A stretch of 19,378 bases of DNA from Myxococcales bacterium (GTDB lineage Bacteria; Myxococcota; Myxococcia; Myxococcales; Myxococcaceae). A program made the translations under genes and the position numbers. Of the stretch, positions 2,962-16,705 are shown piece after piece. The stretch lies in assembly GCA_003153055.1 (NCBI GenBank), contig PMBV01000071.1, positions 169 through 19,546 on the forward strand, read 5' to 3'. The notes beneath the pieces were generated by a model. It was given only the letters and a program-made list of their open reading frames with translations. It made no database searches and was not told the origin of the DNA. Every line of letters begins with the position of its first letter. The first letter of the stretch is position 1.

Positions 2962-3017
2962 GCTGAAGGGTCGCCAGAGGGTTGCAACGCCGGTTCGTTG
3001 AAGGCAGGAAACAGAGC

Positions 3018-4856
3018 TCAGGTGGCGCAATCCCCATCGAGGGTCTGGGGCCGAAACGCTTCGCTGGCCCCCAGTTCGACGAAGTCCTCGGCCCGTGCGT
3101 CTTCGAGGTCGAGCGTCTCGAGGGGCGCGAGGAGCGCCTTGGCCTGGTCGAAGGCCCTCGCGAAGAACGGGCCGGCAGCCTCCCCTGGTCGTCGCTCCGC
3201 GAGGTAGAGCGAGACCAGCCGGTCGACCGCTTCGGCGGCGCGTCGCGCGGGAACCTTGGCCGCCAGCCGCCCGAAGGTGGCCGTGCCCGGGGCCGAGCTG
3301 CCTCCGAGGAGCACGAAGTACTGGGGCACCGAACGGCCGCCGAGCTTGCGAGCGCTGCCCTGGAGCCCGATGGCCGAGATGTGGTGCTGGGAGCAGCCGT
3401 TGGGGCAGCCCGACACGTGCACCGAGACCTCGGCGCCGAGGGCCGCCGGACCCAGGCTGCGAATGCGCTCGTCGATGGCCCGGGCCACCTCGCGGGTGCG
3501 GGTGACGGCGAGCCGGCAGACCTCGGCGCCTGGGCACGCGACGACGTCGGCTGCCGAGCCCACGCCGTCGCGGGCGAGGCCAGCCGCGGCCAGCCGGGCG
3601 TGGAGCGAGGGCACGTCGCGCTCTCGCACCCAGCGGAGGAGCAGGTGGCCGGAGCTCCCCAGGCGAACCGAGCCGTCTCCGTAGGAAAGCGAGAGGTCGG
3701 CGAGGGTCTCGAGCTGGGCCGAGGTGAGGTCGCCTCGGGGTGTCGCGATGGTGACCACGCGGTAGCCGTCTTGCCGCTGAGCCCTCGAGTTGGAGCGGAG
3801 GAACGCCGTGAGCGACGCGGGCGAAGGCTCGAGGTCCACCTCGACGGGAGGGATGGCGCCGGGGCCCTTGAGCGTGGCGGCTCGCGCGCGCTCAGCAATG
3901 GCTTCGACCGACGGGGCTGGGGGCCGCGCGTGGAGGGGCGCCTCCTCGATGGCCGGGTGCTGGGGGTCGAAGGGGAGCCGTGGGGCGCCCTCGCTCTTCA
4001 CCGCCGAAAGTGACTCCTCCACCAGGGCTCGGATCGCCTCGAAGCCGAGCTCCTTGACCAGGAACTTGAGCCGGTTTCGTTGTCGGTTCTTGCGATCACC
4101 TCGGGCGTGGAAGACGCGGATGATGGCTTCACCCAGCGCCAGGACGTCGGCGACAGGCAGGAACGGGAAGAGCAGGGTGCCGGAGGTGCAGGCGGAGGAG
4201 GTGCCTCCCGCGATGGTCACCGTGAACCCGCGTCGGTCGACGCCGCCTTCCTGGCGAATCACTGCGCGAAGGCCGAGGTCTTGAATGGCCGTTCCGGCGT
4301 GGTCCACCGAAGCGCAGCCCTCGAAGGCTAGTTTGAACTTCCGCGGCAACGACGACGCCAGCGGGTGCCGAAGGAAGTGGCGCGTCATCGCCTCGGCGTA
4401 GGGGGTCGGGTCGAAGACCTCATCGGGTGAGACGCCCGCGAAAGGGCAGGTGACCACGTTGCGCACGGTGCTGCCTCCGGCGCCCGAGGTGGTGATGCCG
4501 GTGTCGGCCAGTCGGCGTAGCGCGGGCACCAGGTCGGCCGGCCGGAGGAAGTGGGCCTGGAAGTTCTGCCGCGTGGTGATGTGCCCGAAGCCCCGGGAGT
4601 AGAGAGCCGTGACGTCGGCGAGGGCCCGGAGCTGCTCGGCGGTGGCGATGCCCTGGGGCATCTTCACCCGGAGCATGTGCACTCCGTCCTGCCGCTGCGA
4701 GTAGGCGCCTTGGGCCACGCGGTAGGTGCGCCAGGCCTCGGTGTCGATCTCCCCTCGCTCGTAGCGGCCGAGCGTCGCGACGAAGTCGTCGATCTCGGTT
4801 GGGTCGGCGAACGATGCACGGTCACGGCCAGGGGGCACGGGGGCGAGGACGGACAT
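3018..4856 (-). CDS. Ferredoxin-type nitrite/sulfite reductase (siroheme, 4Fe-4S)
   Basis: 612-aa siroheme-dependent reductase catalysing a six-electron reduction (nitrite to ammonia, or sulfite to sulfide) in the cytoplasm. The protein is the pseudo-duplicated family fold. The first half carries the ferredoxin-like part ([16 protein letters not shown]) and [13 protein letters not shown], the conserved anion/siroheme-binding Arg region. The second half carries the cluster ligands Cys441-x5-Cys447 (CPGAEVC) and Cys484-x3-Cys488 (SGCPNGC) that bind the 4Fe-4S centre bridged to siroheme. The length matches NirA/Sir proteins. The start at 4856 is supported by AAAGGAG at good distance. The open frame continuing to 5435 crosses the repeat-rich intergenic DNA and is not coding. 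Nitrite versus sulfite specificity cannot be settled here; no assimilation partner gene is adjacent. Confidence 0.92.
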
Positions 4857-4878
4857 GGAAGCTCCTTTGTGGGGCGAA

Positions 4879-4907
4879 TCCTTAATAACGGACAAACGTC
4901 CTGTCAA
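4879..4907 (-). promoter_or_regulatory. Candidate reductase promoter with GGAC-N4-GTCC dyad in its spacer
   Basis: On the minus strand a perfect -35 hexamer TTGACA (4907-4902) is followed by the dyad GGACGTTTGTCC (4901-4890) and an AT-rich TTATTAAGGAT that could hold a weak -10. The start codon of the reductase is at 4856. A dyad inside the promoter spacer is a common repressor position. Rrf2-family sulfur, nitrite or iron regulators would be reasonable candidates, but that assignment is inference. Confidence 0.45.
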
Positions 4908-5226
4908 GCGGACGGTCGACCTCGGCGAAGGGTGAAGAAGTTCTGCGTGCGGGCAGGATGGTGAGCATGCCTTGACGTGCGAGGGTGGGGTTGGTGCCCA
5001 CCGACCGAGGCGGTCTGACCAGCGCCTCGGCCCGAGATCGCAGTGAGCACACGTGTGGGGCACGAGCCGGGCCTTCACTAATCGCCCGCCGGCCGTGGGC
5101 GCCTGCTGCTCGCCGAGCGGGTGAGGCGAGTGGCGGCCAGCAGGAACAGGGTTGCGTTGCCGACGGAGGAGCCAAAGGCCCGGCGATAGACAAGCCGAGA
5201 AATGGAGCGGCCGAGCGCTTGGGCGC

Positions 5227-5342
5227 TGGGCAGACATCTCCGTCGAGCTCCGCACCGCCTCGGCTGGCCCAGGCTCCCACGACCTGTCATCGCGGTGTAC
5301 AGATTTGTACACCCTGATGACGCGCTTTGAAACCCAAGGCGA
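5227..5342 (+). repeat. 116-bp direct repeat, copy 1
   Basis: Begins TGGGCAGACATCTCCGTCG and ends ACCCAAGGCGA. By direct alignment it matches copy 2 (offset 293 bp) at 110 of 116 positions, and the first 50 bases are identical. Inside are a CTGGGC...GCCCAG stem pairing across about 38 nt and a 36-bp interrupted palindrome (5286-5321). Flanks of the two copies are unrelated, so the ends are well defined. Confidence 0.95.
5286..5321. promoter_or_regulatory. 36-bp interrupted palindrome in repeat copy 1
   Basis: GTCATC-N2-GGTGTACAGATTTGTACACC-N2-GATGAC. The outer 6-bp arms pair perfectly. The inner 20-mer is a palindrome with one mismatch at the centre. The shape suits a dimeric or double-dimer DNA-binding protein, or a cruciform. 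No gene starts within 300 bp, so a promoter-operator role is not supported by context. Confidence 0.55.
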
Positions 5343-5407
5343 GCGCGACGCCACTCCACGATCAGACCAGCCCCGCTGCACGGCAGGTCCCCGACTGAAG
5401 GACTGAG

Positions 5408-5499
5408 GGGCCAGGGTCGCCAGCAACGGCACCAATGGTTACATCTGTCGCGAGGCCCGCGAATGGTACCATTGGTGACGTTGCCGGGGACCCTCGCCC
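5408..5499. repeat. Long imperfect inverted repeat between the direct repeats
   Basis: Left arm 5408-5439 and right arm 5468-5499 are 32 nt each and pair at 28 positions. Both arms contain ACC(A/T)(A/T)TGGT next to the loop. The 28-nt loop holds a further small stem, TCGCG-AGGCC-CGCGA. The whole could fold as a long hairpin on either strand. It sits midway between the two 116-bp repeats. No poly-T follows either arm, so it is not a typical intrinsic terminator. Confidence 0.8.
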
Positions 5500-5519
5500 A
5501 TGAGGACGGGTCAGCGACC

Positions 5520-5635
5520 TGGGCAGACATCTCCGTCGAGCTCCGCACCGCCTCGGCTGGCCCAGGCTCTCACTACCTGTCATCGCGGTGTACAAATTTG
5601 TACACCCTGATGACGCGCTCGGAGACCCAAGGCGA
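5520..5635 (+). repeat. 116-bp direct repeat, copy 2
   Basis: Second copy of the element at 5227-5342, with six substitutions, three of them clustered near the right end. The internal stem is one pair longer here (CCTGGGC...GCCCAGG), and the central palindrome is perfect. Retention, and improvement, of the paired positions despite substitutions suggests that the structure matters. Confidence 0.95.
5579..5614. promoter_or_regulatory. 36-bp interrupted palindrome in repeat copy 2
   Basis: GTCATC-N2-GGTGTACAAATTTGTACACC-N2-GATGAC. The inner 20-mer is a perfect palindrome and the outer arms pair perfectly. It is the cleaner version of the site at 5286-5321. The binding protein is unknown; TetR-type regulators recognise comparable AT-centred dyads, but nothing here proves one. 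Confidence 0.6.
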
Positions 5636-5870
5636 CCGGACGCCCCTCGAGCCGTGATCGCGCAACGTCCGTGACGCGTGGCAGGTGAAGAGCCACGGCC
5701 ATGCACCAGTCGACCGACCGGCCGAGGGGCTCGTCGTGCTCGCCCGGAGCCCCCGAGCCCCGCGCCATCGGCCCACGCCTCGGGCCGCTGACGAGCCGGC
5801 AGCCGTCAGTACCGGTTCATCTCGTATACAGGACGCCTCGCCTCCTCGCGCGCATAGCCCCATCACCGGC

Positions 5871-5901
5871 TCACCACACCCGCTCGCGTTCCTTCGGCTC
5901 G
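5871..5901 (-). pseudogene. Fragment matching the 3' end of the M13 peptidase gene
   Basis: Thirty-one bases match 14651-14681 at 28 positions in the same orientation. On the minus strand they read EPKERERVW followed by TGA. The intact M13 peptidase ends EPKERVRVW plus TGA. Upstream in the same frame there is a stop only 17 codons before the match, and the codons between do not resemble an M13 protein, so only the extreme 3' end is present. The flanks on both sides are unlike those at 14651. It may be a displaced gene end left by island insertion or a decayed paralogue. It lies 53 bp beyond the stop codon of the ABC permease. Confidence 0.6.
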
Positions 5902-5954
5902 TGTCGGGGTCCCCGGCGATGGCCAGGCACAGCCCCGCCGGAGCGAGCATCCTT

Positions 5955-8345
5955 TCAGGCACGCACTCGCACGGCTTCGGCCAACGACGCCCGCGACACA
6001 CGTCTGAGCGCGGGCCATTGAGCGAGTATCGCCACCAGGAAGACACCTGCAAGTGTCCCCGCCACGGTTCCCGCCTCGACGACGAACGGAAACGAGAAGA
6101 GGTCCCCTGAGAACGTGGCCAGAATCGCCCGCCCGCCGACCATCGCCAAGGGAAGCCCCAGCGTCAGACCAAGCAGGACCAGGATTCCGTGCTGCATCGT
6201 CACGAGCGCCGTCACCTCTCGCATGCGCAACCCCAGGGCCCTCAACGTGGCGAATTCGCGCTGTCGCTCCAACACGAGCAGCGTGGCTGTGTTGAAGAGG
6301 ATTGCCCCAGCCAGGACACCCCCGAAGGCCAGCATCACGGCGATCATCACCCAGCCCAGGCCCATGATCGCGTCGAACTGCACCCGCGTCGCCGCGGCGT
6401 CCTCGACCCGGAGGGCCCCGGGAAACGCGGCGACGAGGCCCTCCCGCACCGAGGAGGCTGCGTCCCCGGGCGCGCGCGCGACGACGGACGTCGCGAGCCC
6501 CGAGAGTGCCCACCGCTCGTCGACATCGGCTCGACGCGCCGACGCAGTGCTGCCCATCGTCGCGTCCGCGAAGCCAGTGAGGCGCAGCGGGATGTCCATC
6601 CCACCCAGCAGTGGAGCGACCTGCACCGTATCGCCGACACGGACGTGGAGCTTCCTCGCGGCGTTTCTTGTCATCACCAGCCCGCCGGCCTCCATCGGCA
6701 CCAGGGCGCCGTCAGCATCGGCCGCCCGCACCAGCCGGGCGTCGTCATCGAGGGCCTGCAGTTGAACGTCGACGGCGGCTCCGCCCGCCTCGAGGCGCGC
6801 GGGGACCACGAGGAGCGCCTCGACGGCGCCCACCCCATGAACACCACGCGCCACGGCCAGCGCCTCAGCCTTCGGAACAGGGGCGCCGAAGTCCACCCGC
6901 ACGTCGTAGGCACGCGCGCGGGTGAAGAGGGAGCTGAACGTCGCGCGCATGGAGTCCATGAGGAGGCCGGTGGACAAGACCAGGACGACCGCCGCAGCCA
7001 CTCCGAGCGAAGTCCCCAGGCTCCGCAATGGGCGGTCGAGGATGTCGCGGAGGGCCAGTTGCACCGAAAGCGGACCTGGCACGCTCCTCAGGAGACGGGC
7101 GGGCTTGGACAGGGATGGCGGCGCTGGCCGCATCGCGTCGGCCGGTGGCAAGCGCATCGCGCGAAACGCAGGCAAGAGCCCCGCGACCGTGGAGACCGCC
7201 CCCCCCATCGCCAGACCAACCAGAAGCAGGTCGGAGTGAAAGCTGGCCACGACGAAGGGAATGTTGAGCTCCGATGCGTAGGCGCGAGTCACCTCGGGGG
7301 AAACGAGTGCTCCCAGGAGGACGCCGAGGAGGGCGCCTCCCCCTCCCAGCACCAGCGCATACGAGAGGTAGTGCCCGAGCACCGCGCCCCGGGACACTCC
7401 CAGGGCAAGCAAGGTCCCGACGAGGGGGCGTTGCGCGTCGACCAGCCGCGCGAGCGCCGAGCCCATGATGAAGGCCCCGACGCCGAGAAAGAAGAACGGA
7501 AAGAAGGCGGCCATGCCCTGGTACCCGTCCACGTCCATCTGGAGGAGCTTCACGCCAACCAACTCGCTGCTCGGTGTCGCCCGCAGGACCCGCGCCGGGC
7601 CGAGCGTCGCCGTGATGGCTTGACCAAGGGTGGAGATGGCAGTGCCGGGGCTCGGCTCGACAAGAAGCTGGGTGCCGACCGCGTCGCTTGCGGCGGCGAG
7701 GAGGTCCGGGGCGCGCAGGCTCGAGGTCAGCGTCTGCGCTACGCGACGCAGCTCAGCCCGTTGCATCCAGCCGACGCCGAACTCCTCGGCGCTCGGCATG
7801 AAGTCATTCTCATCTCGCGCGACCCAAAGGTATTCGGCGCTCACTCCGACGCCACTCACGCGAAGGGGCTGACCACCCGGCCCCACCGGCAGCGAAGCAC
7901 CGACCCCGAGGCCGTGGTACCTGGCGAAGTGCTTCTCGAGCAGGACCTCGCCGACGCCCGGAGCCCTGCCATCGAGGACGAGGACCCGATCGAGCCTCGA
8001 GGCGCCTCCGTCGGGGAGGGAGAGCACGCGAAGGGCGATGCGGCGCATCTGGCCGTGGGGCGGAGCAACCGGAATCTCAGCCACCACCCGCGCTTCGGCG
8101 ACGGCGACACCGGGGAGCGCCGCGATTCGCGCCACGTCGGGTTCGGTCAGTGGCGTCGCTACGTCTACGTGAAGCCCGGCGAGGCCGAGCCGGGCACGGG
8201 TCGCCGAGTAGCTATCGCGCAGATCTCGGTACGCCCCCGCCGAGGAAACGAAGAGCATCACTCCAAGGGCCATGACAATGCCCACGGCGATCGAGGAGCC
8301 GAGCTGGCCCCAGAGGTCACGCCGGAGCTTCTGGAGGAGCAGCAT
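5955..8345 (-). CDS. ABC transporter permease, two FtsX/MacB-like domains
   Basis: 796-aa inner-membrane permease of the MacB/FtsX exporter class (LolCDE-related fold family). A first span lies at about residues 17-37 (SSIAVGIVMALGVMLFVSSAG), then a periplasmic domain to about 270, then three spans (about 278-300, 308-348, 372-395). A second unit follows, with a span near 444-466, another periplasmic domain, and a C-terminal FtsX domain containing LERQREFATLRALGLR. That motif is the cytoplasmic coupling segment next to the ATPase. Fused double-unit permeases of about 800 aa are typical of this class. The ATG (8345-8343) overlaps the ATPase stop by one base, so translation is coupled. No membrane-fusion or outer-membrane partner is adjacent. 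The exported substrate is unknown; lipids, lipoproteins or peptides are possible. Confidence 0.9.
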   Translation of the reverse strand: MLLLQKLRRDLWGQLGSSIAVGIVMALGVMLFVSSAGAYRDLRDSYSATRARLGLAGLHVDVATPLTEPDVARIAALPGVAVAEARVVAEIPVAPPHGQMRRIALRVLSLPDGGASRLDRVLVLDGRAPGVGEVLLEKHFARYHGLGVGASLPVGPGGQPLRVSGVGVSAEYLWVARDENDFMPSAEEFGVGWMQRAELRRVAQTLTSSLRAPDLLAAASDAVGTQLLVEPSPGTAISTLGQAITATLGPARVLRATPSSELVGVKLLQMDVDGYQGMAAFFPFFFLGVGAFIMGSALARLVDAQRPLVGTLLALGVSRGAVLGHYLSYALVLGGGGALLGVLLGALVSPEVTRAYASELNIPFVVASFHSDLLLVGLAMGGAVSTVAGLLPAFRAMRLPPADAMRPAPPSLSKPARLLRSVPGPLSVQLALRDILDRPLRSLGTSLGVAAAVVLVLSTGLLMDSMRATFSSLFTRARAYDVRVDFGAPVPKAEALAVARGVHGVGAVEALLVVPARLEAGGAAVDVQLQALDDDARLVRAADADGALVPMEAGGLVMTRNAARKLHVRVGDTVQVAPLLGGMDIPLRLTGFADATMGSTASARRADVDERWALSGLATSVVARAPGDAASSVREGLVAAFPGALRVEDAAATRVQFDAIMGLGWVMIAVMLAFGGVLAGAILFNTATLLVLERQREFATLRALGLRMREVTALVTMQHGILVLLGLTLGLPLAMVGGRAILATFSGDLFSFPFVVEAGTVAGTLAGVFLVAILAQWPALRRVSRASLAEAVRVRA

Positions 8346-9031
8346 CAGGAGGCCTCCTCGCGCAGCCGCGAGCGCGTGTCGGAGACCACCTCGCCATCGC
8401 GTAAGCGGATCACCCGGTCCGACGCGCCCACGAGGCCCTCGTCATGGGTCACCACGACAACCGTGCAGCCGGACTTCGCCGCCTCTCGCAACAGGCGCAT
8501 GACCTGACCACCAGTCTCGTGGTCGAGTGCCCCTGTGGGCTCGTCAGCGAGGAGGAGCCGCGGCTTCTTCGCGAGCGCGCGGGCAATGGAGACTCGCTGC
8601 TGCTCACCGCCCGAGAGCTCGGACGGAAAGCGGTCCGCCTTCTCGGCGAGACCGACCTCGGCCAGGCAGACGCGGGCCTCGGCGGAGGAGCCACCGACGA
8701 GCTCGGCGGCGAGGCGCACATTCTCGAGCGCCGTCAGCGTCGGCACGAGGTTGAAGAACTGAAAAACGAAGCCGACTGTCTGGCGCCGAAAGAGCGTGAG
8801 CGCGTCGAGGCTCAGGCTCGAGAGCTGGTGACCTTCAACCTCGACCGAGCCTCGCGTCGGGCGATCGAGGCCACCCAAGAGATTGAGCAGCGTCGTCTTG
8901 CCGGATCCGCTCGGGCCAAGGAGGAAGGCGAACTCTCCTCTGGCAACGGTGAGGCTCGTCGGCGAAAGCGCCAGTGTCCTGACTACGGTCCCGTATTCCT
9001 TGGTCGCTTGAATGAGACGCCCACCGGTCAT
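8345..9031 (-). CDS. ABC transporter ATP-binding protein (MacB/LolD type)
   Basis: 228-aa ATPase that energises the adjacent FtsX-type permease. Seen in order are Walker [10 protein letters not shown] (residues 39-47), the Q-loop Gln91 in [14 protein letters not shown], the signature LSGGEQQR (139-146), Walker [13 protein letters not shown] (159-170) and the H-loop His196 in VVVVTHD. FQFFNL after the Q-loop and ADEPTGALD are typical of the LolD/MacB branch. The start at 9031 has GAGGAG 8 nt upstream. The longer open frame to 9403 runs through the divergent promoter region and is not used. The stop overlaps the permease start (one shared base). The candidate MarR operator at 9124-9135 lies about 95 bp upstream of the start. 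Confidence 0.94.
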
Positions 9032-9123
9032 GGCTCCATCTCCTCTCGCAGAGAAATCGATTCGCTGCCTCCCCCATCGGCAATGAAGCACTTGCAGGCG
9101 GGGGCTCCATCTGCTCCACTTAG

Positions 9124-9135
9124 GTGGATATCCAA
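9124..9135. promoter_or_regulatory. Candidate MarR operator, site 1 (ABC operon / zinc-ribbon gene)
   Basis: GTGGATATCCAA contains the perfect 10-bp palindrome TGGATATCCA. It lies in the 159-bp gap between the divergent ATPase (-) and zinc-ribbon (+) genes, beside an A-rich stretch that is unusual for this GC-rich DNA. On the minus strand, TTGTCT followed 17 nt later by TATCCA would place the dyad over the -10. Control of either or both directions is possible. Confidence 0.6.
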
Positions 9136-9190
9136 CAATCAAAGAAAAGACAATGCGCCCTCCCCTTTGGGCCCTTCGCGGTAGACCAGG

Positions 9191-9610
9191 ATGCGCCCCA
9201 CCATGACGCAGCAGCTCGTGACACCCTCCGCAAACCACCCCATCCAAGTGACGCTGGCAATTCTCGACTCGGCCCGCCCCCCGACGGTTGCGGACCTCGC
9301 CGTCGTGGTGCTGACGAAGTCCGCCCGCCTCAAGCGAGCCCTTCGGCACCTCGCGGCCGTGTGGGGTGGGGCGGCACTCGCAATCGCCGTACCGCTGCTC
9401 CACTTCATCCTGGTCCCGCTGTTGTTTCTCGCAGGCCCGGTCGTCGCGGTGCGTGCCTTCCGCGCGCGCGTCCGTGCAGACGCGAAGACCAGCATCGGCT
9501 GCCCAAAGTGCGCCGCCCTGGTCTCTCTCGAAAGCCCTCGCTACGGGTGGCCTCTTCGCTTCGACTGTCGCGAATGCGGAGTCGGGTTCACTGCCAGCCC
9601 CCGAAGCTGA
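9191..9610 (+). CDS. Small membrane protein with C-terminal zinc ribbon, function unknown
   Basis: 139-aa protein I cannot assign to a named family. The N-terminal 55 residues look soluble. A long hydrophobic hairpin follows (about 56-88, GGAALAIAVPLLHFILVPLL and LAGPVVAVRAF), then a basic loop (RARVRADAKT). A four-Cys ribbon ends the protein: Cys104-x2-Cys107 (CPKC) and Cys126-x2-Cys129 (CREC). The spacing fits a rubredoxin-like zinc knuckle, presumably cytoplasmic. Two starts compete: ATG 9191 has no Shine-Dalgarno, while ATG 9203 (MTQQ) has AGGA about 11 nt upstream, giving 135 aa. Codon third positions are strongly G/C, supporting translation. It is divergent from the ABC operon across operator site 1 and converges with the ClC gene, leaving only 10 bp between the stops. 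Confidence 0.72.
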   Translation: MRPTMTQQLVTPSANHPIQVTLAILDSARPPTVADLAVVVLTKSARLKRALRHLAAVWGGAALAIAVPLLHFILVPLLFLAGPVVAVRAFRARVRADAKTSIGCPKCAALVSLESPRYGWPLRFDCRECGVGFTASPRS

Positions 9611-9620
9611 TGGACCTCCC

Positions 9621-11870
9621 TCAGGCCCGAGAGGATCGCGCGTACCACTCGACCAGCAAAGACCCGAGGGCGGAACGGGTGACGACGCCTTCCTCGGCCG
9701 CGCCGGGCGAGCCCCGGATCAGCAAGGCGGGCGCGTCGGAAGAGACGCACTGAGCGACGAGCTGTGAGAGCGTCGCGTTCGCCTCAGCCTGGGGCGCTGG
9801 CCTCATGAGGTCCGCTGCGACCAGCATCCGTTGAAGCTGCTCGTCGCCGAGGAAGTCGCGCACATGCTCCAGCAGCACGACCCCTAAGGCGTGCCCATCG
9901 CTCGCCCGCACCACGATGGCGCCGCTGCTCGAATCGCAGAAGCGGTCGAGCAGCTCCTCGAGGGGCACATTGGCCGCTACGGAAGGAGCCGGCTTTGCGA
10001 GGTCTTGGGCCAGCACCTCTCCCAGCCCGTCCAACGCGAGGCGCTCCAACTTCGGCGTCGGTCCCGCGCCAGCGGCTCGTGCATGGGCGCGAACCAAATC
10101 GGTGATCGTCAGGATGCCCACGACCCGAGAGGCGCTCTTCTCGTCGAGCACCACGAGCGCGCGCACCGAGCGGTCATTCATACGAACGACGGCGCGGGTC
10201 AACGGAACATCGGCGAGGATCGTCTCGACGCGCTGCACGAGCTGCCGGAGCGGTGTATCGGGAGGGGCTTGGCGAAGCTTCGCGAGGGGAACCGCGCCCT
10301 GGAAGGTCCCGTCCGCATCAAGCGCCGGTGCCATCTCGAAGGTCCTCCCCGAGAAGTCAGGCCGCACCTCGCCCACGGTCCCCGTCGTCTTCACCGACAC
10401 GACGGCGGCCGTCATCGCCTCACCGACCGTCAGCCGCTCGAGCGCATGCCCACGAGGTGAAGCATGGGGAAGGGCGATGCCATCTTGGGCGAGGAGCGCC
10501 TCGTAGATGGGGGTCGGCCGAAGGCGGCGCGCGAGCACATAGGACGTCATGTTGGCGAGCATGAGCGGGAGGACGAGCCCATAGCCGCCCGTCATCTCGA
10601 AGATGATGAGGACCGAGGTGATGGGCGCCCGGATGACTCCTGCGAACACCGCCCCCATCCCGACGAGGGCGAAGGCGCCGAGTTGCCGTTCCTCGTGGTG
10701 AAAGGCGGCGACATCGAGGTAGCCGACGGCACCGCCCAACATCGCTCCCACGAAGAGTGACGGAGCAAAGATGCCACCTGCTCCACCGCTCGAGTACGAG
10801 AAGACGGTCGCCGCGATCTTCACTGCGCAGAGCGCCAACAGGACGCCCAGCCCCAGCTGCCCTGCCAGCGCCTTTCCCAGCGTCTCGTAGCCACCACCGG
10901 TGACACCCGTCGTGCCGAGGAGCTTCATCATCGCCACCGCCAGGACACCAGTCACGAGTCCCCCGACCGCCGGCTGCGACCACCGAGGAATCGCCTCGAG
11001 GTCTCGAAAGCCCTTCCTGAGTCCAAGCAGCCCGTCCGTGAAGACCACCGACACCAGGCCGCCGGCAATGCCCAAGAGCGCATAGAAGGCCAGCGAAGAA
11101 GGGTGGTCGAGCCCATAGGACTGCTGGACTTCGATGACTGGGTGGACCCCGAGGACTCCGCGCTCGATCACCGCAGCCAGGGCCGCGGCGACGACGACTC
11201 CCGAGAGCACGGCGTGGTCCAGCGAACCGACGATCTCCTCGATGGTGAAGGTCACCGCGGCGATGGGCGCGTTGAACGCGGCGGCGATCCCAGCCGCCAC
11301 GCCCACTGGGAGAAGGCGACGCATGTTCTTCGCGGGCAGCGCCGTGAGGCGGGCCAAGAGGCTCGTCGCGCCAGCACAAATCTGAACGGTGGGCCCCTCT
11401 CTGCCCAGCGAGGCCCCGGAGCCAATCTGTAAGATGCCGATCCAGAACTTCCCGAAGGCGTCCCGGAAGCGCACGCGACCGCCCTCGATCGCGAAAGACG
11501 CCTTCACCTGCGGAATGCCCGAACCGCGCGCCCCTGGAACGACGAACGTCAGGAGGGCGCCTGCGACGAGGCCTCCCACCGTCGGCGACACGATGGTCCA
11601 CGCCATCCAGCTGTCTCCTGGAGCATGGAGGGCTCGGTCGATCAGTAGGGATTCGGCCCCCTTGATGCCGAGATGAAAGGCGACCGCGACGAGCCCGCAG
11701 ACGACGCCGACGCCGATGGTGAGCGCGAACAAGTGCTGGGACTCGAAGGGAAAGTGGCGGCGGAGGAGCGCGCTGACCCGCTCCCGTGCCCGAGAGCCTC
11801 TGACGCGGGCCCGCTGCACCAACGCGTTGGCTCTGTCCATCAGCCCCGAGTGCTCGACTTCACGCCCCAT
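9621..11870 (-). CDS. ClC-family chloride channel / Cl-/H+ exchanger with four CBS motifs
   Basis: 749-aa inner-membrane ClC protein. Signature positions are GSGIPQ (residues 116-121, chloride-coordinating Ser), GREGP (156-160, with gating Glu158) and FNAPIAAVTFTIEEI. The Glu-Glu pair in the last (211-212) aligns with the internal proton-transfer Glu203 of E. coli ClC-ec1, so exchange rather than pure channel activity is likely. A GGAGGIFAPSLFVGA segment also matches the family. The cytoplasmic tail of about 280 residues holds two consecutive CBS pairs: VGEAMTAAVVSV and the segment ending VVGILTITDLV, then the segments ending ALGVVLLEHV and starting AADLMRP. Many bacterial ClCs have no CBS domain or one pair. 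The start is uncertain: ATG 11870 is preferred, with ATG 11840 and GTG 11969 as alternatives. Operator site 2 lies 131 bp upstream, shared with marR. Confidence 0.92.
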   Translation of the reverse strand: MGREVEHSGLMDRANALVQRARVRGSRARERVSALLRRHFPFESQHLFALTIGVGVVCGLVAVAFHLGIKGAESLLIDRALHAPGDSWMAWTIVSPTVGGLVAGALLTFVVPGARGSGIPQVKASFAIEGGRVRFRDAFGKFWIGILQIGSGASLGREGPTVQICAGATSLLARLTALPAKNMRRLLPVGVAAGIAAAFNAPIAAVTFTIEEIVGSLDHAVLSGVVVAAALAAVIERGVLGVHPVIEVQQSYGLDHPSSLAFYALLGIAGGLVSVVFTDGLLGLRKGFRDLEAIPRWSQPAVGGLVTGVLAVAMMKLLGTTGVTGGGYETLGKALAGQLGLGVLLALCAVKIAATVFSYSSGGAGGIFAPSLFVGAMLGGAVGYLDVAAFHHEERQLGAFALVGMGAVFAGVIRAPITSVLIIFEMTGGYGLVLPLMLANMTSYVLARRLRPTPIYEALLAQDGIALPHASPRGHALERLTVGEAMTAAVVSVKTTGTVGEVRPDFSGRTFEMAPALDADGTFQGAVPLAKLRQAPPDTPLRQLVQRVETILADVPLTRAVVRMNDRSVRALVVLDEKSASRVVGILTITDLVRAHARAAGAGPTPKLERLALDGLGEVLAQDLAKPAPSVAANVPLEELLDRFCDSSSGAIVVRASDGHALGVVLLEHVRDFLGDEQLQRMLVAADLMRPAPQAEANATLSQLVAQCVSSDAPALLIRGSPGAAEEGVVTRSALGSLLVEWYARSSRA

Positions 11871-12000
11871 GGCTCTCGCGACGCCCCGCGAAAAACTCCG
11901 AGCCCCCCGACAACGTACCGGCCATGCAGCGGAGGACGACTGTTTCCCGGTTACCCCCGGGCGCCTCACGAGTCATTCGTTCAATCTACCATGCGTTCGA

Positions 12001-12012
12001 TTGGATATCCAA
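12001..12012. promoter_or_regulatory. Candidate MarR operator, site 2 (marR / ClC divergent promoter)
   Basis: TTGGATATCCAA is a perfect 12-bp palindrome in the gap between the divergent ClC gene and the small-ORF/marR unit, 12 bp before the ATG at 12025. On the plus strand a weak -10, TACCAT, ends at 11992, which would put the transcription start inside or beside the dyad. MarR proteins commonly bind palindromes of this size in their own promoter. This is the most complete copy in the window. Confidence 0.75.
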
Positions 12013-12024
12013 CTTGTTGGTGCT

Positions 12025-12183
12025 ATGAGCACCAGTACACCGAGGTCAACGCGAGAAGAAGTCGGGCTGCGCGCCGCATCACTGAGGTCGCCAGCGTCGG
12101 CTGCCGAGTATTTCCTTCACGACCAAACCGAAATTGATGGTCTGCTCCGACGGCTCATCAGCTTCCGGGAGTCCATGACATGA
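12025..12183 (+). CDS. 52-aa small protein coupled to the MarR gene
   Basis: Short ORF beginning MSTSTPRSTREEVGLRAA and ending TEIDGLLRRLISFRESMT, with a polar N-terminus and a predicted amphipathic C-terminal helix. I recognise no family. Support comes from position: it starts 12 bp after operator site 2, and its TGA overlaps the MarR ATG in an ATGA arrangement, typical of translational coupling. Against it are the lack of a clear Shine-Dalgarno (leader AACTTGTTGGTGCT) and only moderate G/C at third positions. The open frame extends upstream over the operator and into ClC antisense, but the promoter position makes 12025 the sensible start. It could be a leader peptide whose translation sets MarR level, or a small partner of MarR. 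Confidence 0.45.
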   Translation: MSTSTPRSTREEVGLRAASLRSPASAAEYFLHDQTEIDGLLRRLISFRESMT

Positions 12184-12665
12184 AGGCCACATTGCCGGCG
12201 GAGTTTCCTCTCGAGGCGCCCCTCGACTTCCTTCAGCACCTCTGGCACCTGAACCACGCTCTCGAGCGCATGTCGCAGCAGATGAAGCGCACGCTCGGCG
12301 TGACGGCGCAGCAACGCCTCTTCATTCGGTGCATCGGGAAGTACCCCGGCATGACAGGAAGTCAACTGGCCACGGTCCTTCACCTGGATCCTGGCACCGT
12401 CTCCGTGGCCCTCACCAGACTGGCCAAGCTGGGCCTCATCACCAGGCGCCGCGACTCGCGCGACAATCGCAGGGTCTCCCTCGGGTTGACGGCTCAAGGT
12501 CGAGCGCTGGACAGGCCGAACCGCGCGACGGTTGAACATGCCGTCGAGGGAATGCTCGCCAAGGCCGGACGCGCAGACGTCGAGAGGGTCAAGGACGTCC
12601 TTCGGATTCTCGCCGAGGATCTCTCGGAGAAGGTACGGGGCGGAGGCCGCACCACCACGCGGTGA
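12180..12665 (+). CDS. MarR-family transcriptional regulator
   Basis: 161-aa winged-helix dimeric regulator. Helix 1 region LDFLQHLWHLNHALERM is part of the dimer interface. The helix-turn-helix MTGSQLATVLHLDPGTVSVALTRLAKLGLI is unmistakable (given here in parts: MTGSQLATVLHL, then DPGTVSVALTRLAKLGLI, residues about 58-87). The wing TRRRDSRDNRRVSLGLTAQG (89-108) carries the family DxRxxR pattern (DSRDNRR), with Asp and Arg in place. A single Cys51 lies before the HTH, so a two-Cys OhrR-type switch is not evident. Members usually repress their own operon and nearby transport or stress genes, and release DNA on binding phenolic or other small ligands. The upstream dyad and its repeats at neighbouring promoters make autoregulation and local control likely. 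Its ATG overlaps the stop of the 52-aa ORF. Confidence 0.93.
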   Translation: MKATLPAEFPLEAPLDFLQHLWHLNHALERMSQQMKRTLGVTAQQRLFIRCIGKYPGMTGSQLATVLHLDPGTVSVALTRLAKLGLITRRRDSRDNRRVSLGLTAQGRALDRPNRATVEHAVEGMLAKAGRADVERVKDVLRILAEDLSEKVRGGGRTTTR

Positions 12666-12726
12666 GCTCCGGCGAGGAGCCCTCACTGTCGTCACCAGGC
12701 GGCCGCCCTGCGCGAGCCAATTCGCC

Positions 12727-12746
12727 TATACTATTGGTGCTCCAAT
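12727..12746 (+). promoter_or_regulatory. Promoter -10 abutting dyad, site 4 (SGNH hydrolase)
   Basis: TATACT (12727-12732, five of six consensus bases) is followed at once by ATTGGTGCTCCAAT (12733-12746), a dyad with perfect 5-bp arms and a 4-nt centre. It matches the relaxed form TTGG-N4-CCAA of the TTGGATATCCAA sites. The dyad reaches into the start codon at 12745. The position directly after the -10 is the same as at site 3. No good -35 is seen. Confidence 0.5.
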
Positions 12747-13626
12747 GATTGGGTGTTCACTCTCGAGCTCGAGGCGGAGAGCGCCGGATACAGCGCCGTC
12801 CGTGCATTCGTACCCCGTGGCCATCTTGGCCGCGCTTCTGGTGGCTCATGGCGCGCACGCCGCCCCGTCTCCCGGGGCGGCTTCGGGCGGTGAGCGCTGT
12901 CCAAACCTGAGGCCCCTCGGTCGCCTCGACGCGCCGCTCCCTCACACGGCAGAGAGGTTGCGTCGCGGCGGAGTGCTCCAGGTCGTCGCGCTCGGCTCCT
13001 CCTCGACCGCCGGGGTCGGCGCGACTGCTCCGGCCAACGCGTATCCGAACGAGCTCCAGCTGGAGCTGGCCGCGCACTTCGGGCACTCCTCGATTCGCGT
13101 GCTGAATAGAGGGGTCCCTGGTGACACATACCGCCAGATGCTGGATCGCCTGGATCGCGATGTCCTCGCATTTCACCCCGACCTCGTCATTTGGCAGGTG
13201 GGAACGAACGCAGTCATCAACGAGAACGGCGTCGCAAAGGACGGGCCGCCAATCCGAAAGGGCGTAGAGCGGCTCAAGGCCGCAGGTGCAGACGTCATCC
13301 TCATGAACCCGCAGTACTCGCCGCTCCTCCTGCACGATCCAGATTGCCCGGTGATGCTCGATCTGATCGACGAAATCGGTCGGGACGAGCACGTGCCGGT
13401 GTTTCACCGCTTCGCGGTGATGCACGAATGGCTGGTTTCGGGCACGACGACGTTCGCCACCATCTTGGCCCCCGACGGTCTCCACATGAACGACCTCAGC
13501 CACCGTTGCATCGGTGACTTGCTTGCCGACGCGATCGCCGAGGTCGCAGATCACGACTCGGAGGCCGCAGGGTCGGAGCATGCTCCACACCTCGTCCCCC
13601 CACTGCGTCGCGGAACCTGGCGTTGA
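12745..13626 (+). CDS. Secreted SGNH/GDSL-type hydrolase
   Basis: 293-aa esterase-fold hydrolase, probably exported. The N-terminus has a basic region and a hydrophobic core, VAILAALLVAHGAHA, with likely cleavage after AHA (residue 39). SGNH blocks are visible: block I VVALGSSSTAGVG (nucleophile Ser86 where GDSL proteins have GDS), block II RGVPGDT (oxyanion Gly), block III WQVGTN (Asn155) and block V APDGLHMND (Asp244 and His247, the DxxH of the catalytic triad). Substrates in this family range from acyl esters to O-acetylated glycans, and none can be chosen here. ATG 12745 is favoured because it gives a full signal peptide, but it leaves almost no leader after the TATACT -10. The open frame upstream to 12532 overlaps marR and is discarded. 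It converges with the gene ending at 13649. Confidence 0.88.
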   Translation: MIGCSLSSSRRRAPDTAPSVHSYPVAILAALLVAHGAHAAPSPGAASGGERCPNLRPLGRLDAPLPHTAERLRRGGVLQVVALGSSSTAGVGATAPANAYPNELQLELAAHFGHSSIRVLNRGVPGDTYRQMLDRLDRDVLAFHPDLVIWQVGTNAVINENGVAKDGPPIRKGVERLKAAGADVILMNPQYSPLLLHDPDCPVMLDLIDEIGRDEHVPVFHRFAVMHEWLVSGTTTFATILAPDGLHMNDLSHRCIGDLLADAIAEVADHDSEAAGSEHAPHLVPPLRRGTWR

Positions 13627-13634
13627 AGCTGCTC

Positions 13635-13648
13635 GGCCGTCATCGGCC
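13635..13648. terminator. Weak hairpin between convergent stops
   Basis: GGCCG-TCAT-CGGCC is a perfect 5-bp stem with a 4-nt loop, occupying most of the 22-bp gap between the convergent stops at 13626 and 13649. No T-run is present on either side, so termination strength is doubtful. Confidence 0.3.
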
Positions 13649-13960
13649 TCACCGTCGGGCTGAAACATCATCGCGCTCGACCGCTGGGGAAGCCGCAGCG
13701 CGCGGCGAGAGTTCGGCGACCAGCTCCCATGCTCCGTCCGCCACTGACGCCTGGCGTAGAAGGCAGACTCGTAGGTCGATGATCGCTCCGCCGTTGAGCT
13801 CAAGCGCCAGGGGTGTCCCTAACTCCACGGGGCGCCGAAAGCGAAACGCGATGACCGACGCTACCGAGGCTGGCTCCTCCGAATCCCAAAGGTCCCCCGG
13901 CCCGATGAACGACGTCACCGGGCACCAGCGAGCCCCGCGCACGACCAGCCAGGTGGTCAC
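13649..13960 (-). CDS. Hypothetical 103-aa protein, possible PilZ-like fold
   Basis: 103-aa protein with no family I can name confidently. The middle section (FRFRRPVELGTPLALEL, IDLRVCLLRQ, GAWELVAELSP) has the alternating strand pattern of PilZ-like small barrels. The c-di-GMP-binding RxxxR and (D/N)xSxxG motifs are not convincingly present, so binding is not claimed. The C-terminus is polar and probably disordered. The start is GTG 13960, well supported by AGAGGAGGG just upstream. It lies 17 bp downstream of the Pal-like gene on the same strand, so the two form an operon behind operator site 3. Its stop faces that of the SGNH hydrolase. No signal peptide is seen, suggesting a cytoplasmic protein. 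Confidence 0.62.
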   Translation of the reverse strand: MTTWLVVRGARWCPVTSFIGPGDLWDSEEPASVASVIAFRFRRPVELGTPLALELNGGAIIDLRVCLLRQASVADGAWELVAELSPRAAASPAVERDDVSARR

Positions 13961-13977
13961 CGCGCTCCCTCCTCTGG

Positions 13978-14487
13978 CTACCTGGACGCGTGAAGCTCAT
14001 CCCGCCGGTTCTGGGTCCACGCCTCCTCGGTGTGCGCGGGATTGACGGGCCGGAGCGCACCGTAGCTGACCGTGGCGAGTTGCGACGGATCCACCCCGAG
14101 GTCGAGCAGATACTTTCGCGCGGCTTCTGCGCGGCGCTGCCCGAGCATGAGGTTGTACTCCTCGGTGCCACGCTCGTCGCAGTTGCCCTCGATGTCCACG
14201 ACGCGTGGGTGCTTTCGCAGGACCACGGCGACGCGCCGCAGTGCCTCCATGCCTTCCGGTTTGAGCTGCACCTGGTCAAAATCAAAGAAGACCGTCGCGC
14301 TCTTGATCGCGGCCTGTATCTCGGCCATCGGGTCTCCCTCAGCAACTGGCTGGGCAGTGAGCTGCGGCTTCGCGGCTGGCGACTCAGCCTGAGGAGGAAG
14401 AACGGCCGTTTCTTTGGGGGCTGCCGTGTGCGCGCAAGCAGCGAAGACCAAGGCACCAAGGACTGCTGACATCGGGACAAGTCGCAT
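13978..14487 (-). CDS. pal: Pal-like OmpA-family peptidoglycan-associated lipoprotein
   Basis: 169-aa outer-membrane lipoprotein predicted to bind peptidoglycan. The signal peptide MRLVPMSAVLGALVFAAC ends in a lipobox (FAAC, Cys18; Phe at -3 is less usual). A Pro/Ala-rich linker follows to about residue 55, then the OmpA C-terminal domain (63-168) with ATVFFDFDQVQLKPEG, EGNCDERGTEEYN (Asp104) and LGQRRAEAARKYL (Arg119, diaminopimelate-binding pattern), ending SYGALRP and NRRDELHASR. The layout and length match Pal of Tol-Pal, but no tol or ybgF gene is adjacent, so it may be a paralogue. ATG 14487 is chosen because GGAGG sits 7 nt upstream. Operator site 3 and a -10 lie just ahead. The small gene at 13649-13960 follows in the same operon. 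Confidence 0.9.
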   Translation of the reverse strand: MRLVPMSAVLGALVFAACAHTAAPKETAVLPPQAESPAAKPQLTAQPVAEGDPMAEIQAAIKSATVFFDFDQVQLKPEGMEALRRVAVVLRKHPRVVDIEGNCDERGTEEYNLMLGQRRAEAARKYLLDLGVDPSQLATVSYGALRPVNPAHTEEAWTQNRRDELHASR

Positions 14488-14504
14488 TGTTGGACCTCCA
14501 CTCA

Positions 14505-14545
14505 TTGGATATCCACTTAATACGCAGACCAAACCCTCGCCGCAA
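14505..14545 (-). promoter_or_regulatory. Promoter and candidate MarR operator, site 3 (pal operon)
   Basis: Reading the minus strand: -35 TTGCGG (14545-14540), 17-bp spacer, -10 TATTAA (14522-14517), then immediately GTGGATATCCAA (14516-14505), which contains the same perfect palindrome TGGATATCCA as sites 1 and 2. The Shine-Dalgarno and the ATG of the Pal-like gene follow within 20 bp. A protein on the dyad would cover the transcription start, so repression is the natural prediction. Confidence 0.65.
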
Positions 14546-14650
14546 CTGGGCGGGCTACTGGTATTGGGCCCGGCCCCCATGGAGCTGGGGAGAAACGCCA
14601 CAGGTCTTCCGCGTCGTTGTGGGATTCCCCGTGCGCCGTAGCTCAATCCC

Positions 14651-14681
14651 TCACCACACGCGAACGCGTTCCTTCGGCTCG
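14651..14681 (-). repeat. Direct-repeat partner of 5871-5901 (3' end of M13 peptidase gene)
   Basis: The terminal 31 bp of the peptidase coding sequence match 5871-5901 at 28 of 31 positions in the same orientation. The differing bases are at 14660, 14663 and 14664. With its partner it brackets the whole block from the ABC permease to the pal promoter. Confidence 0.7.
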
Positions 14682-16705
14682 AGGAACAGCTTCTCGCCGG
14701 GCTTTACGTCGAAGGCGGTGTACCAGGCGTCGACGTTCCGCACGGTGGCCGCGCGGTACGGGTCGGGCGCGTGGCCGTCGACGATGATTTGCTGTCGCAG
14801 AGACTTCTCTCGGGACTTCTCTCTCCACGACTGGGCATAGGCCACGAAGAACTGCTGCTCGGGAGTGAAGCCCTGCTCGGCGAGGGCCGGCTCCGCGCCC
14901 CGCGAGTGAACCCATGCGTCATGGGTGGCCGCGAGCCCCGCCAGGTCGGCGATGTTCTCGCTGAGGGTCAGCTTCCCGTTCACGTGGAGGTCGGGGAAGG
15001 GCTCGTAGGCGTTGTACTGAGCTACGAGCTGGGCCCCCGACGCCTCGAAGTGTGCCGCGTCTTCCTTGGTCCACCAGTTGGCCAGCCGACCGCTGGAGTC
15101 GAACAGCGCCCCTTGGTCATCGAAGCTGTGGGAGATCTCGTGCCCGATGGTAGCGCCCAGAGAGCCGTAGTTGGCCGCCGCAGTTGCCGCGGGGTCGAAG
15201 AAGGGCGGCTGGAGGATCGCCGCGGGGAAGTTGAGGGCGTTCTGCACCGGGAGGTTCACCGCGTTCACCGTCTGCGGCGTCATGCACCACTCCATCCGGT
15301 CCACCGGCTTGCCCAGCTTGGCGACCTGCCTCCGGTACTCGAACAGCCCGGCCCGCTCGAGGTTCCCCAAGGCGTCGCCCGGCGTCACCACGAGGCCTTC
15401 GTAGCTCACCCACTTCTCCGGGTAGCCGATGCCCACGTAGAGCGTCGCCAGCTTCTGCTTGGCCTGGGCCTTCGTCTTGGGGGCCATCCACTCCAGGGCG
15501 TCGATGCGCGCCTGGAAGGCAGCCACGAGGTTCTTCACCATGACTTGAATGCGGGCCTTCGACTCGGCCGGGAAATAGCGCGCGACCCACAGGTGGCCCA
15601 CGGCGTCGCCCAGGGCCTCGTTGGTCCTCGACACGCTGCGCTTCCAGCGGGCCCTCAGCTCCGGCGTGCCCGAGAGCGCTCGCCCGTAGAGGTCGAAGGA
15701 CGCATCCACGAAGGCCTTGGGCAGTGCTGGGCTCGCGCGGTCGATGGTGTGAAAGACGAGCCACTCCTTCCAGGTCGACAGGGGCTCGCTCTGGACCAGC
15801 GCCGAGAGCGCCGTGGTGGCCTTGGGGTGCCAGACGATGAAGCGCTGTTGCTGAGAGAGCCCGGCGCCGTCGAAGAAGGCCCCCCAATCGAGCCCCGGAG
15901 CCTTGGTGCCGAAGTCGGCCCGCTTCCACGGGTTGTTGGCCTTGAGCACGTCGGCCGACACCTCGCGGCTGGCGTGGCCCTGGGCCATCTTCGTCTCGAG
16001 GGCGAGCACCCGCGCGGCTTTCGCCTTCTCATCGGCGACGCCCGCCAGGTGGAGCACGAGCGCGATGTGCTCCTCGTACGTGGTGCGGAGCTCCTTCATG
16101 CGCGGTGACTCGTCGAGGTAGTAGTCGCGGTCAGGCAGCCCCAGGCCTCCTTGCAGCAGGTACGCCGTGTACCGCTGGGGCGCGTCGAGCGCCGGCGACA
16201 CCCAGAGGCCGAACAGGCGATCCGTGGCGAAGTTGGTGGAGTTGAGCGGGTCGACGTCGGCGCGGAGCTCTTGGCCCAGCAGCTTGGCCAGCGCCTTCTT
16301 GTCGGCGAGCTTCTCGATGCGCTCGAGGGCTGGCGCGAGGGGAGTGACGCCGCGGGCCTCGATGGTCGCCTCGTCGAGGAAGGTGGCGTAGTAGTCACCC
16401 GCCTTGCGCGCCTCGGTGCCTGCCGGAGCCTTGGTCGCAGCCTCGAGGAGCTCGCGGACCCGCTCGTCGGCCTGGGCGGCGATGGCCGAGAAGACGCCCC
16501 ACCTCGGGCGATCCGCGGGAATCTCGGTGCTCCGCTCCCAGGCTCCGTTGGCGTAGCGGAAGAAGTCGTCGCCGGGCTTCACCGTTCGATCCATTCCTCC
16601 GAGGTCGATGGACGGCGTGGTCGCCGCGCCGCCGTCGGGAGCACCGAGGGCAGTGGCGGAGACCAGGCTCGAGAGGGCCGCGGTCAGCACGAGGTTGATT
16701 CTCAT
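14651..16705 (-). CDS. M13-family (neprilysin/PepO-like) zinc metalloendopeptidase
   Basis: 684-aa exported zinc peptidase of family M13. A Sec signal peptide (MRINLVLTAALSSLVSATAL) ends near ALG-AP. The mature N-terminus has the family motif DDFFRYANGAWERST. Downstream, NALNFPAAILQPPFF precedes the zinc site GHEISHSFDDQG (HExxH His522, Glu523, His526) and ENIADLAG (third ligand Glu583, with Asp587). The C-terminus EPKERVRVW matches the usual M13 ending, with Val where many members have Cys. Length is normal and all catalytic residues are present. ATG 16705 is chosen; a TTG six codons earlier is an alternative, and neither has a strong Shine-Dalgarno. It is probably periplasmic or secreted and degrades peptides. 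It is divergent from the MCP-like gene. Its last 31 bp recur at 5871-5901. Confidence 0.93.
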   Translation of the reverse strand: MRINLVLTAALSSLVSATALGAPDGGAATTPSIDLGGMDRTVKPGDDFFRYANGAWERSTEIPADRPRWGVFSAIAAQADERVRELLEAATKAPAGTEARKAGDYYATFLDEATIEARGVTPLAPALERIEKLADKKALAKLLGQELRADVDPLNSTNFATDRLFGLWVSPALDAPQRYTAYLLQGGLGLPDRDYYLDESPRMKELRTTYEEHIALVLHLAGVADEKAKAARVLALETKMAQGHASREVSADVLKANNPWKRADFGTKAPGLDWGAFFDGAGLSQQQRFIVWHPKATTALSALVQSEPLSTWKEWLVFHTIDRASPALPKAFVDASFDLYGRALSGTPELRARWKRSVSRTNEALGDAVGHLWVARYFPAESKARIQVMVKNLVAAFQARIDALEWMAPKTKAQAKQKLATLYVGIGYPEKWVSYEGLVVTPGDALGNLERAGLFEYRRQVAKLGKPVDRMEWCMTPQTVNAVNLPVQNALNFPAAILQPPFFDPAATAAANYGSLGATIGHEISHSFDDQGALFDSSGRLANWWTKEDAAHFEASGAQLVAQYNAYEPFPDLHVNGKLTLSENIADLAGLAATHDAWVHSRGAEPALAEQGFTPEQQFFVAYAQSWREKSREKSLRQQIIVDGHAPDPYRAATVRNVDAWYTAFDVKPGEKLFLEPKERVRVW

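What the first reader, a model, noticed from the sequence alone, without database searches (positions are those of the whole stretch)
5871..14681. An 8.8-kb block bracketed by direct repeats of a peptidase gene's 3' end
The last 31 bp of the M13 peptidase gene (14651-14681) recur at 5871-5901, same orientation, 28/31 identical, and both encode EPKER-x-RVW plus TGA. The interval between them holds exactly the ABC pair, zinc-ribbon protein, ClC, small ORF/MarR, SGNH hydrolase and pal pair. Integration at a gene's 3' end, with the element restoring that end and displacing the original one, is the classic island signature. If so, 5871-5901 is the displaced end. Caveats: no integrase or transposase is visible inside, and base composition is not obviously foreign. 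Alternatives are a decayed paralogue or a recombination scar.
Basis: partly seen in the sequence, partly recalled or inferred. Interest (0 to 1): 0.82.

Follow-up and report, generated by a model that had tools for sequence, protein, structure and literature searches.

The report
Gene block bracketed by gene-tail repeat
A seven-gene block in the genome of an uncultured relative of myxobacteria is bracketed by two copies of a neighbouring peptidase gene's last 31 letters and has its own codon habits, so it was probably inserted there, but nothing that could have moved it is left and the event is not proven.

Summary
The repeat is real: 5870-5901 matches 14650-14681 at 29 of 32 bases, with abrupt edges. 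Chance is unlikely: the 31-base tail with up to 3 mismatches occurs in 0 of 195 Myxococcota genomes, and it is the only one of 597 gene tails with a 28/31 second copy in its own locus.

At synonymous sites the block differs: the seven bracketed genes are the best contiguous codon-usage run and rank first of 1,716 seven-gene subsets; a free breakpoint fit puts the edges at the repeats. Contrasts as strong occur in 5 of 39 control loci, so the coincidence of edges matters, not the size.

ClC, MarR and Pal homologues were in 0 of 93 M13 loci; MarR was in 5 and Pal in 2 of 6 ClC loci, none with M13.

Against: no recombinase found, no relative close enough to show an empty site, three mismatches, and no comparable repeat at 88 other M13 gene ends except one M13 tandem pair.

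Best reading: an old integrase-less insertion, CIME-like in architecture, about 0.45. Known in kind, unproven.

The parts
5870..5901 (-). Second copy of the M13 gene's last 31 bases plus one base after the stop; the displaced end under the insertion reading
   Evidence: 29 of 32 identical to 14650-14681; reads EPKERERVW-stop; its E stands where 120 of 120 listed homologues have V or I
14650..14681 (-). 3' end of the intact M13 peptidase gene, the other copy of the repeat
   Evidence: tail fits the family pattern
14651..16705 (-). M13 peptidase gene (start at 16705 is my estimate), flank-like codon usage
   Evidence: Pfam PF05649 and PF01431; GC3 0.904
5955..8345 (-). Block gene 1: FtsX/MacB-type ABC permease, 796 aa
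   Evidence: Pfam PF02687, PF12704; nearest relative in 195 Myxococcota genomes 52%
8345..9028 (-). Block gene 2: ABC ATPase (start estimated)
   Evidence: Pfam PF00005 on the longer frame 8345-9403; below the cut-offs of FtsE, LolD and YbbA
9191..9610 (+). Block gene 3: small protein, 139 aa, with CxxC...CxxC and a hydrophobic stretch (by eye)
   Evidence: no Pfam, NCBIfam or PHROGs family
9621..11837 (-). Block gene 4: ClC chloride channel/exchanger with CBS domain (start estimated)
   Evidence: Pfam PF00654, PF00571; 73% relative in G078
12180..12665 (+). Block gene 5: MarR-type regulator, divergent from ClC
   Evidence: Pfam PF01047; MarR homologue in 5 of 6 ClC-orthologue loci
12700..13626 (+). 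Block gene 6: SGNH/GDSL-type hydrolase (frame opens at 12532; start estimated)
   Evidence: Pfam PF25182, PF13472
13978..14490 (-). Block gene 7: Pal-like OmpA-domain lipoprotein (start estimated)
   Evidence: Pfam PF00691; NCBIfam Pal_lipo 117.4 bits, cut-off 125.35 not reached
5902..14681 (.). The putative inserted segment: seven genes plus the M13-side copy of the repeat
   Evidence: best contiguous codon-usage run; free GC3 edges 4677-6000 and 14482-15188

Best explanation
A block of about 8.75 kb with seven envelope-related genes was inserted at the 3' end of an M13 peptidase gene. The incoming DNA carried, or the insertion copied, the last 31 bases of that gene, so M13 stayed intact (14651-14681) and its former end was pushed to the far edge (5871-5901), where it no longer codes and has drifted. 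Shown: the repeat, its sharp edges, the intact M13 gene, the block's own codon usage with edges at the repeats. Inferred: one insertion event, and its direction. Not shown: the enzyme; a recombinase was lost or acted in trans. The architecture is that of a cis-mobilizable element (CIME), a decayed integrative element.
For: Repeat 29/32 with sharp edges, absent with up to 3 mismatches from 195 Myxococcota genomes, unique among 597 gene tails. Codon usage: best contiguous run is exactly permease to Pal, rank 1 of 1,716 seven-gene subsets; with automatic gene calls that skip the first 15% of codons the best run is again 5955-14646, with 0 of 462 better subsets. Free GC3 edges coincide with the repeats. 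Tetranucleotide distance of block to rest is exceeded or equalled by 3% of circular shifts. ClC, MarR and Pal in 0 of 93 M13 loci, but MarR in 5 and Pal in 2 of 6 ClC loci, so the pal|M13 edge is also a neighbourhood edge.
Against: No recombinase or transposase among the frames scanned and no tRNA. Three mismatches in the repeat. Of 88 other M13 gene ends, none has a second copy above 24/31 except the tandem M13 pair of L007 (27/31), so the site is not shown to be used elsewhere. No empty site available. Control loci: 5 of 39 exceed the window in codon contrast and 3 of 39 in GC3 gain, with cruder gene starts, the window's best GC3 run also took in the reductase frame (3017-14646). The left GC3 step is weak (0.871 against 0.819) and the right flank's MCP gene (0.839) is close to the block. 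Relatives of block and flank genes are all from mixed Myxococcota groups. The test was chosen after trying GC, tetranucleotides and GC3.
Confidence: 0.45

Rival explanations
1. A bare duplication: 31 bases of the M13 gene end were copied 8.8 kb away by an illegitimate event (template switch or repair), independently of the genes between. The block is then simply a stretch of neighbouring genes with its own codon history.
For: Isolated 28/31 pairs occur in 7 of 49 other GC-rich loci; codon contrasts as strong occur in 5 of 39 control loci; nothing mobile was found.
Against: It leaves unexplained why both edges of the codon-usage run fall at the two copies (one of 66 pairs of internal gene boundaries) and why the copy ends at the stop codon.
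Confidence: 0.27
2. Relic of a lost duplicate M13 gene: M13 was once duplicated and the second copy was deleted down to its last 31 bases.
For: Neighbouring M13 pairs occur in 5 of the loci examined (L007, L018, L033, L051, L115; 106 locus rows with an M13 hit); the L007 pair, 56% identical in protein, shares 27/31 at its ends. Similarity ending at the stop is expected. The fragment has lost a residue conserved in 120 of 120 homologues.
Against: No other M13 remnant in the gap. No end in 195 Myxococcota genomes, 148 of which have an M13 match, is within 3 bases of this tail, so the copy would have to come from a recent duplicate of this very gene. Does not explain the codon-usage edges.
Confidence: 0.17
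3. Coincidence: the two 31-mers are unrelated.
For: A first-stage reader may have looked through many windows; about 0.006 such pairs per window are expected by extrapolation.
Against: 0 of 195 genomes hold the tail within 3 mismatches; the M13 tail reached at most 22/31 in 1.08 Mb of reversed DNA.
Confidence: 0.04
4. Scar of a DDE-type transposon, the repeat being its target-site duplication.
For: Direct repeats bracket a gene block.
Against: No transposase among the frames scanned; best inverted match across the two edges only 16 of 25; 31 bases is far longer than the 8-bp duplication quoted for a DDE-type IME (PMC5704250, passage).
Confidence: 0.03

Closest known systems
CIME (cis-mobilizable element, decayed ICE/IME), described in streptococci: PMC7563491 and PMC5704250 (passages read)
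   Same: Cargo genes without recombination or transfer genes; size within 1.2-13 kb; flanked by direct repeats within the 8-60 bp range; sits at the 3' end of a protein-coding gene, whose end is part of one repeat and so is not disrupted.
   Different: Descent from an ICE or IME and recognition by a recombinase are unknown; no tandem ICE or IME in the window; the target is an M13 peptidase gene, not one of the genes named in those passages (rpmG, rpsI, fda, rplL, tRNA-Lys); the repeat has 3 mismatches.
Classical genomic island with its own integrase at a gene end, e.g. the 10-kb island of Riemerella with 53-bp att sites in a tRNA-Arg gene (PMC6764341, outline and abstract only)
   Same: Direct repeats at the edges, similar size, one repeat within a host gene.
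   Different: No integrase found here, no excision shown, protein gene instead of tRNA gene.
YbbAP-TesA neighbourhood of E. coli (recalled, not from a call), for the cargo only
   Same: An ABC ATPase, a large FtsX-type permease and an SGNH hydrolase within one block.
   Different: NCBIfam YbbA (180.3 bits, cut-off 336) and TesA (24.7 bits, cut-off 270) are not met; ClC and MarR genes lie between.

Membership tests
CIME / decayed integrative element | Direct repeats flank the element | tested here: met
   29/32, same orientation
[quoted passage not shown]
   M13 frame whole, both Pfam halves; tail fits the family
CIME / decayed integrative element | No recombination or transfer genes | tested here: met
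   none among the frames scanned; largest unassigned stretch in the block 351 bases (13627-13977) with my gene starts
CIME / decayed integrative element | The repeats are att sites recognised by a recombinase | not testable with these tools
   needs an excision or integration assay; 3 mismatches speak against present activity
CIME / decayed integrative element | Derived from an ICE or IME | not testable with these tools
   no remnant of conjugation or integration genes seen
Genomic island | Empty site in close relatives | tested here: inconclusive
   no genome held for the window; nearest held M13 61-63% identical; in the 13 nearest M13 loci fetched with about 15-20 kb no left-flank gene was found except one kinase match in L119
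Genomic island | Composition differs from the flanks | tested here: met
   contrast of this size in 5 of 39 control loci
Genomic island | Same cargo at another place | tested here: inconclusive
   parts recur (ClC with MarR 5 of 6, Pal 2 of 6; ABC pair with another ClC 2 of 3), the whole block was not found
DDE transposon | Terminal inverted repeats and transposase | tested here: not met
   best inverted match across the edges 16 of 25; no transposase among frames scanned

The most novel reading that the evidence does not exclude
Myxococcota carry integrase-less gene blocks that move through a recombinase supplied in trans and insert at the 3' ends of protein genes such as M13 peptidases; this window holds one, carrying a ClC-MarR-Pal envelope set together with an ABC exporter.
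Probability: 0.12. Interest if true: 0.55.

Novelty: new member of a known kind. Interest (0 to 1): 0.33.

Why it matters
If the insertion reading is right, this is a clean example of an old island that has lost its integrase and can still be recognised, by a duplicated gene tail and a codon-usage step at the same two points; the pair of tests could be run on any genome. It would also make M13 peptidase 3' ends a new kind of protein-gene insertion site: in my search for pepO with attB, integrase and genomic island, none of the 8 papers listed (of 239) mentions pepO, and a search on Myxococcota with ICE and attachment site listed 4 papers, titles and abstract starts seen only. If it is wrong, it is a small recombination scar.

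Tried and rejected
Empty-site test: no genome is held for the window, and the nearest M13 genes in held genomes are 61-63% identical. The closest protein listed apart from the window's own is 80% identical, on a contig of 6.3 kb, which no tool here gives.

Ancient M13 paralogue as source of the fragment: weakened. Transposon: no terminal inverted repeats. Rfam: 0 matches in the window at gathering scores. Consensus terminators and sigma-70-type promoters at 4800-6100 and 13600-14800: none (other promoter types are not covered). Xer/dif integration (recalled idea): not pursued with a tool; the repeat is GC-rich and lies in a gene. SGNH homologues in Myxococcota: 0 of 195 at E 1e-30, and the tool warns that an empty answer without a positive control shows nothing; in the large protein set the few named relatives are alphaproteobacterial (Stellaceae, Dongiaceae). 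Solved structures: 0 for the permease, 8 distant SGNH chains for the hydrolase. Taxonomic contrast between block and flank genes: mixed on both sides, no decision.

Errors of mine: the reductase and luciferase-like queries were out of frame, and the MCP gene was out of frame; searches use corrected frames. Automatic gene calls in the controls have rough starts; this made the window's best GC3 run include the reductase frame.
Full report
WHAT WAS CLAIMED. The last 31 bases of an M13 peptidase gene (14651-14681) recur at 5871-5901 and bracket an 8.8-kb block, read as an island inserted at the gene's 3' end.

THE OBSERVATION. It is correct: 28/31, or 29/32 counting one base after the stop codon. 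Similarity falls to background at once on both sides. The M13 gene is whole (both Pfam halves). The second copy lies in a 1.1-kb gap between the ABC permease stop (5955) and the estimated start of a nitrite/sulphite reductase-like gene (about 4856), and no other M13 trace was found in that gap. The fragment reads EPKERERVW; where it has E, 116 of 120 listed homologues (the window's own among them) have V and 4 have I, so it is no longer a normal M13 end.

IS IT CHANCE? Simulated windows: best pair 23-26 in 100 runs, never 28. Window 31-mers against 1.08 Mb of reversed real DNA, scaled to one window: 1.7 pairs at 25, 0.14 at 26 (2 raw hits), none higher; I extrapolate to roughly 0.006 at 28. 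The exact tail with up to 3 mismatches in 195 Myxococcota genomes (about 1.36 Gb by my sum of the listed sizes): none on either strand. Tails of 597 genes in GC-rich loci, window included: this one alone reaches 28; five others reach 25-27, of which I checked only those that come from neighbouring M13 copies, L007 and L115. On the other side, 22 of 53 real loci of at least 16 kb hold some direct pair of 28/31 or better, and 7 of 49 other GC-rich loci an isolated one; those I read out look to my eye like intergenic palindromic repeats or shared coding motifs (not tested further). A short repeat is therefore not rare in itself; one at a gene's end is.

IS THE BLOCK A UNIT? Total GC hardly differs. 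At synonymous sites it does. GC3 is 0.906, 0.928 and 0.871 in the three left-flank genes; 0.819, 0.814, 0.793, 0.814, 0.800, 0.753 and 0.738 in the seven block genes; 0.904, 0.839 and 0.857 in the three right-flank genes. A two-breakpoint fit that did not know of the repeats placed the edges at 4788 (4677-6000 within two log units) and 14687 (14482-15188). With full synonymous codon usage, permease-to-Pal is the best contiguous run (gain 89.8, next 75.5) and ranks first among all 1,716 seven-gene subsets. Block against rest in tetranucleotides: 3% of circular shifts do as well.

CONTROLS AGAINST THAT. With automatic gene calls on 40 loci the window ranks 6th in contrast per 1,000 codons; its best run there is again 5955-14646, with 0 of 462 better subsets. 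A best run with no better subset is found in 4 of 40 loci (window, L058, L038, L110); in the other three it is three genes long. In the GC3 version with cruder starts the window ranks 4th of 40 and its best run is 3017-14646, taking in the reductase frame. So the strength of contrast is not special; the agreement of both edges with the repeats is (one of 66 pairs of internal gene boundaries). I chose codon usage after trying GC, tetranucleotides and GC3. The left step is weak, the right step sharp.

NEIGHBOURHOODS. Among 93 M13 loci (1.64 Mb; 80 from the pattern scan of many phyla, 13 of the nearest Myxococcota), ClC, MarR, SGNH, Pal, the small protein, luciferase-like, MCP and methyltransferase homologues are in none; permease and reductase homologues in 1 each, ATPases in 11, kinases in 7. 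In 6 loci with a ClC orthologue (51-73%; three of them contigs of only 8-9 kb), MarR is in 5 (38-69%) and Pal in 2; M13, SGNH and the ABC pair in none. In 3 loci with the ABC pair, a different ClC gene (32-34%) is near it in 2 and a MarR (64%) about 8 kb away in 1. So ClC, MarR and perhaps Pal belong together by neighbourhood, and M13 does not belong with them. The whole block was not found elsewhere. In G047 the reductase and M13 homologues lie on one contig about 528 kb apart, so the window's order does not hold there.

LINEAGE. The relatives found are mostly Myxococcota, with mixed affinities on both sides of the edges: reductase nearest to a group that includes Anaeromyxobacter (68%), luciferase-like gene to G161, G159, G158 and G153 (62-64%), methyltransferase to G077 (60%), M13 to G113 (61%), ClC to G078 (73%), permease to G066 (52%). 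This does not decide between native and foreign.

MECHANISM. The geometry fits insertion at a gene's 3' end: the copy next to the M13 body would come with the element, the displaced end would lie at the far edge. No recombinase, transposase or phage protein appeared among the frames scanned, no tRNA, and the largest unassigned stretch within the block is 351 bases with my gene starts. Integrase-less elements of this build are known as CIMEs: 1.2-13 kb with cargo, att sites kept, recombination and transfer genes lost (PMC7563491, passages); [quoted passage not shown] I also read passages of PMC9345347 and the outline and abstract of PMC6764341; all other papers were seen only in search listings. 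Against a working attachment site: 3 mismatches, and among 88 other M13 gene ends in loci of at least 9 kb none has a second copy above 24/31 except the tandem pair of L007 (27/31; the tandem pair of L115 has 23).

RIVALS. A bare 31-base duplication (0.27), the relic of a lost duplicate M13 gene (0.17), coincidence (0.04) and a transposon scar (0.03). Five neighbouring M13 pairs among the loci examined keep the second alive; argues that the source would have to be a recent duplicate of this very gene. Only a close relative can separate the first three readings, and none is held.

FUNCTION (inference). The block looks like an envelope-stress set: an FtsX/MacB-type ABC pair, a ClC protein with CBS domain beside a divergent MarR regulator, an SGNH hydrolase and a Pal-like lipoprotein. 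No function was tested.

VERDICT. Observation confirmed; interpretation partly supported, and strengthened by codon usage. Insertion of an integrase-less block is the best single reading at 0.45. New member of a known kind; modest interest.

Noticed in passing
window 5226-5648: A direct repeat of about 130 bases (5226-5356 and 5519-5648, 93%) whose copies are imperfect palindromes, so that 5257-5643 as a whole matches its own reverse complement (63%); the cores are GTGTACAAATTTGTACAC and GTGTACAAATCTGTACAC. As RNA it folds far better than shuffles (z -7.2). Short matches in 2 of 195 Myxococcota genomes. It may be a MITE-like element or operator pair just left of the fragment.
   Followed up: partly
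window 9621-12665; L131, L133, L134, L135, L136: ClC genes of this subfamily lie near a MarR regulator in 5 of 6 loci, about 0.3 to 5 kb apart, and near a Pal gene in 2 of 6; absent from 93 M13 loci.
   Followed up: partly
L109 (G066), e.g. 3519, 6695, 9019, 17492, 19009: A dispersed intergenic-looking repeat built from CGATCGGACCGATCGG units, at least six copies in both orientations within 20 kb.
   Followed up: no
L115 (G005) 7933-12097; L007 7702-11935: Tandem M13 peptidase genes, 69% and 56% identical in protein within each pair, less than 300 bases apart.
   Followed up: partly
window 6189-8507 (+): A 772-aa open frame antisense to the permease with no Pfam match; probably a shadow frame of GC-rich coding DNA.
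   Followed up: no
window 8345-13626: ABC ATPase, large FtsX permease and SGNH hydrolase in one block recall the E. coli ybbA-ybbP-tesA neighbourhood (recalled); the NCBIfam cut-offs for YbbA and TesA are not met.
   Followed up: partly
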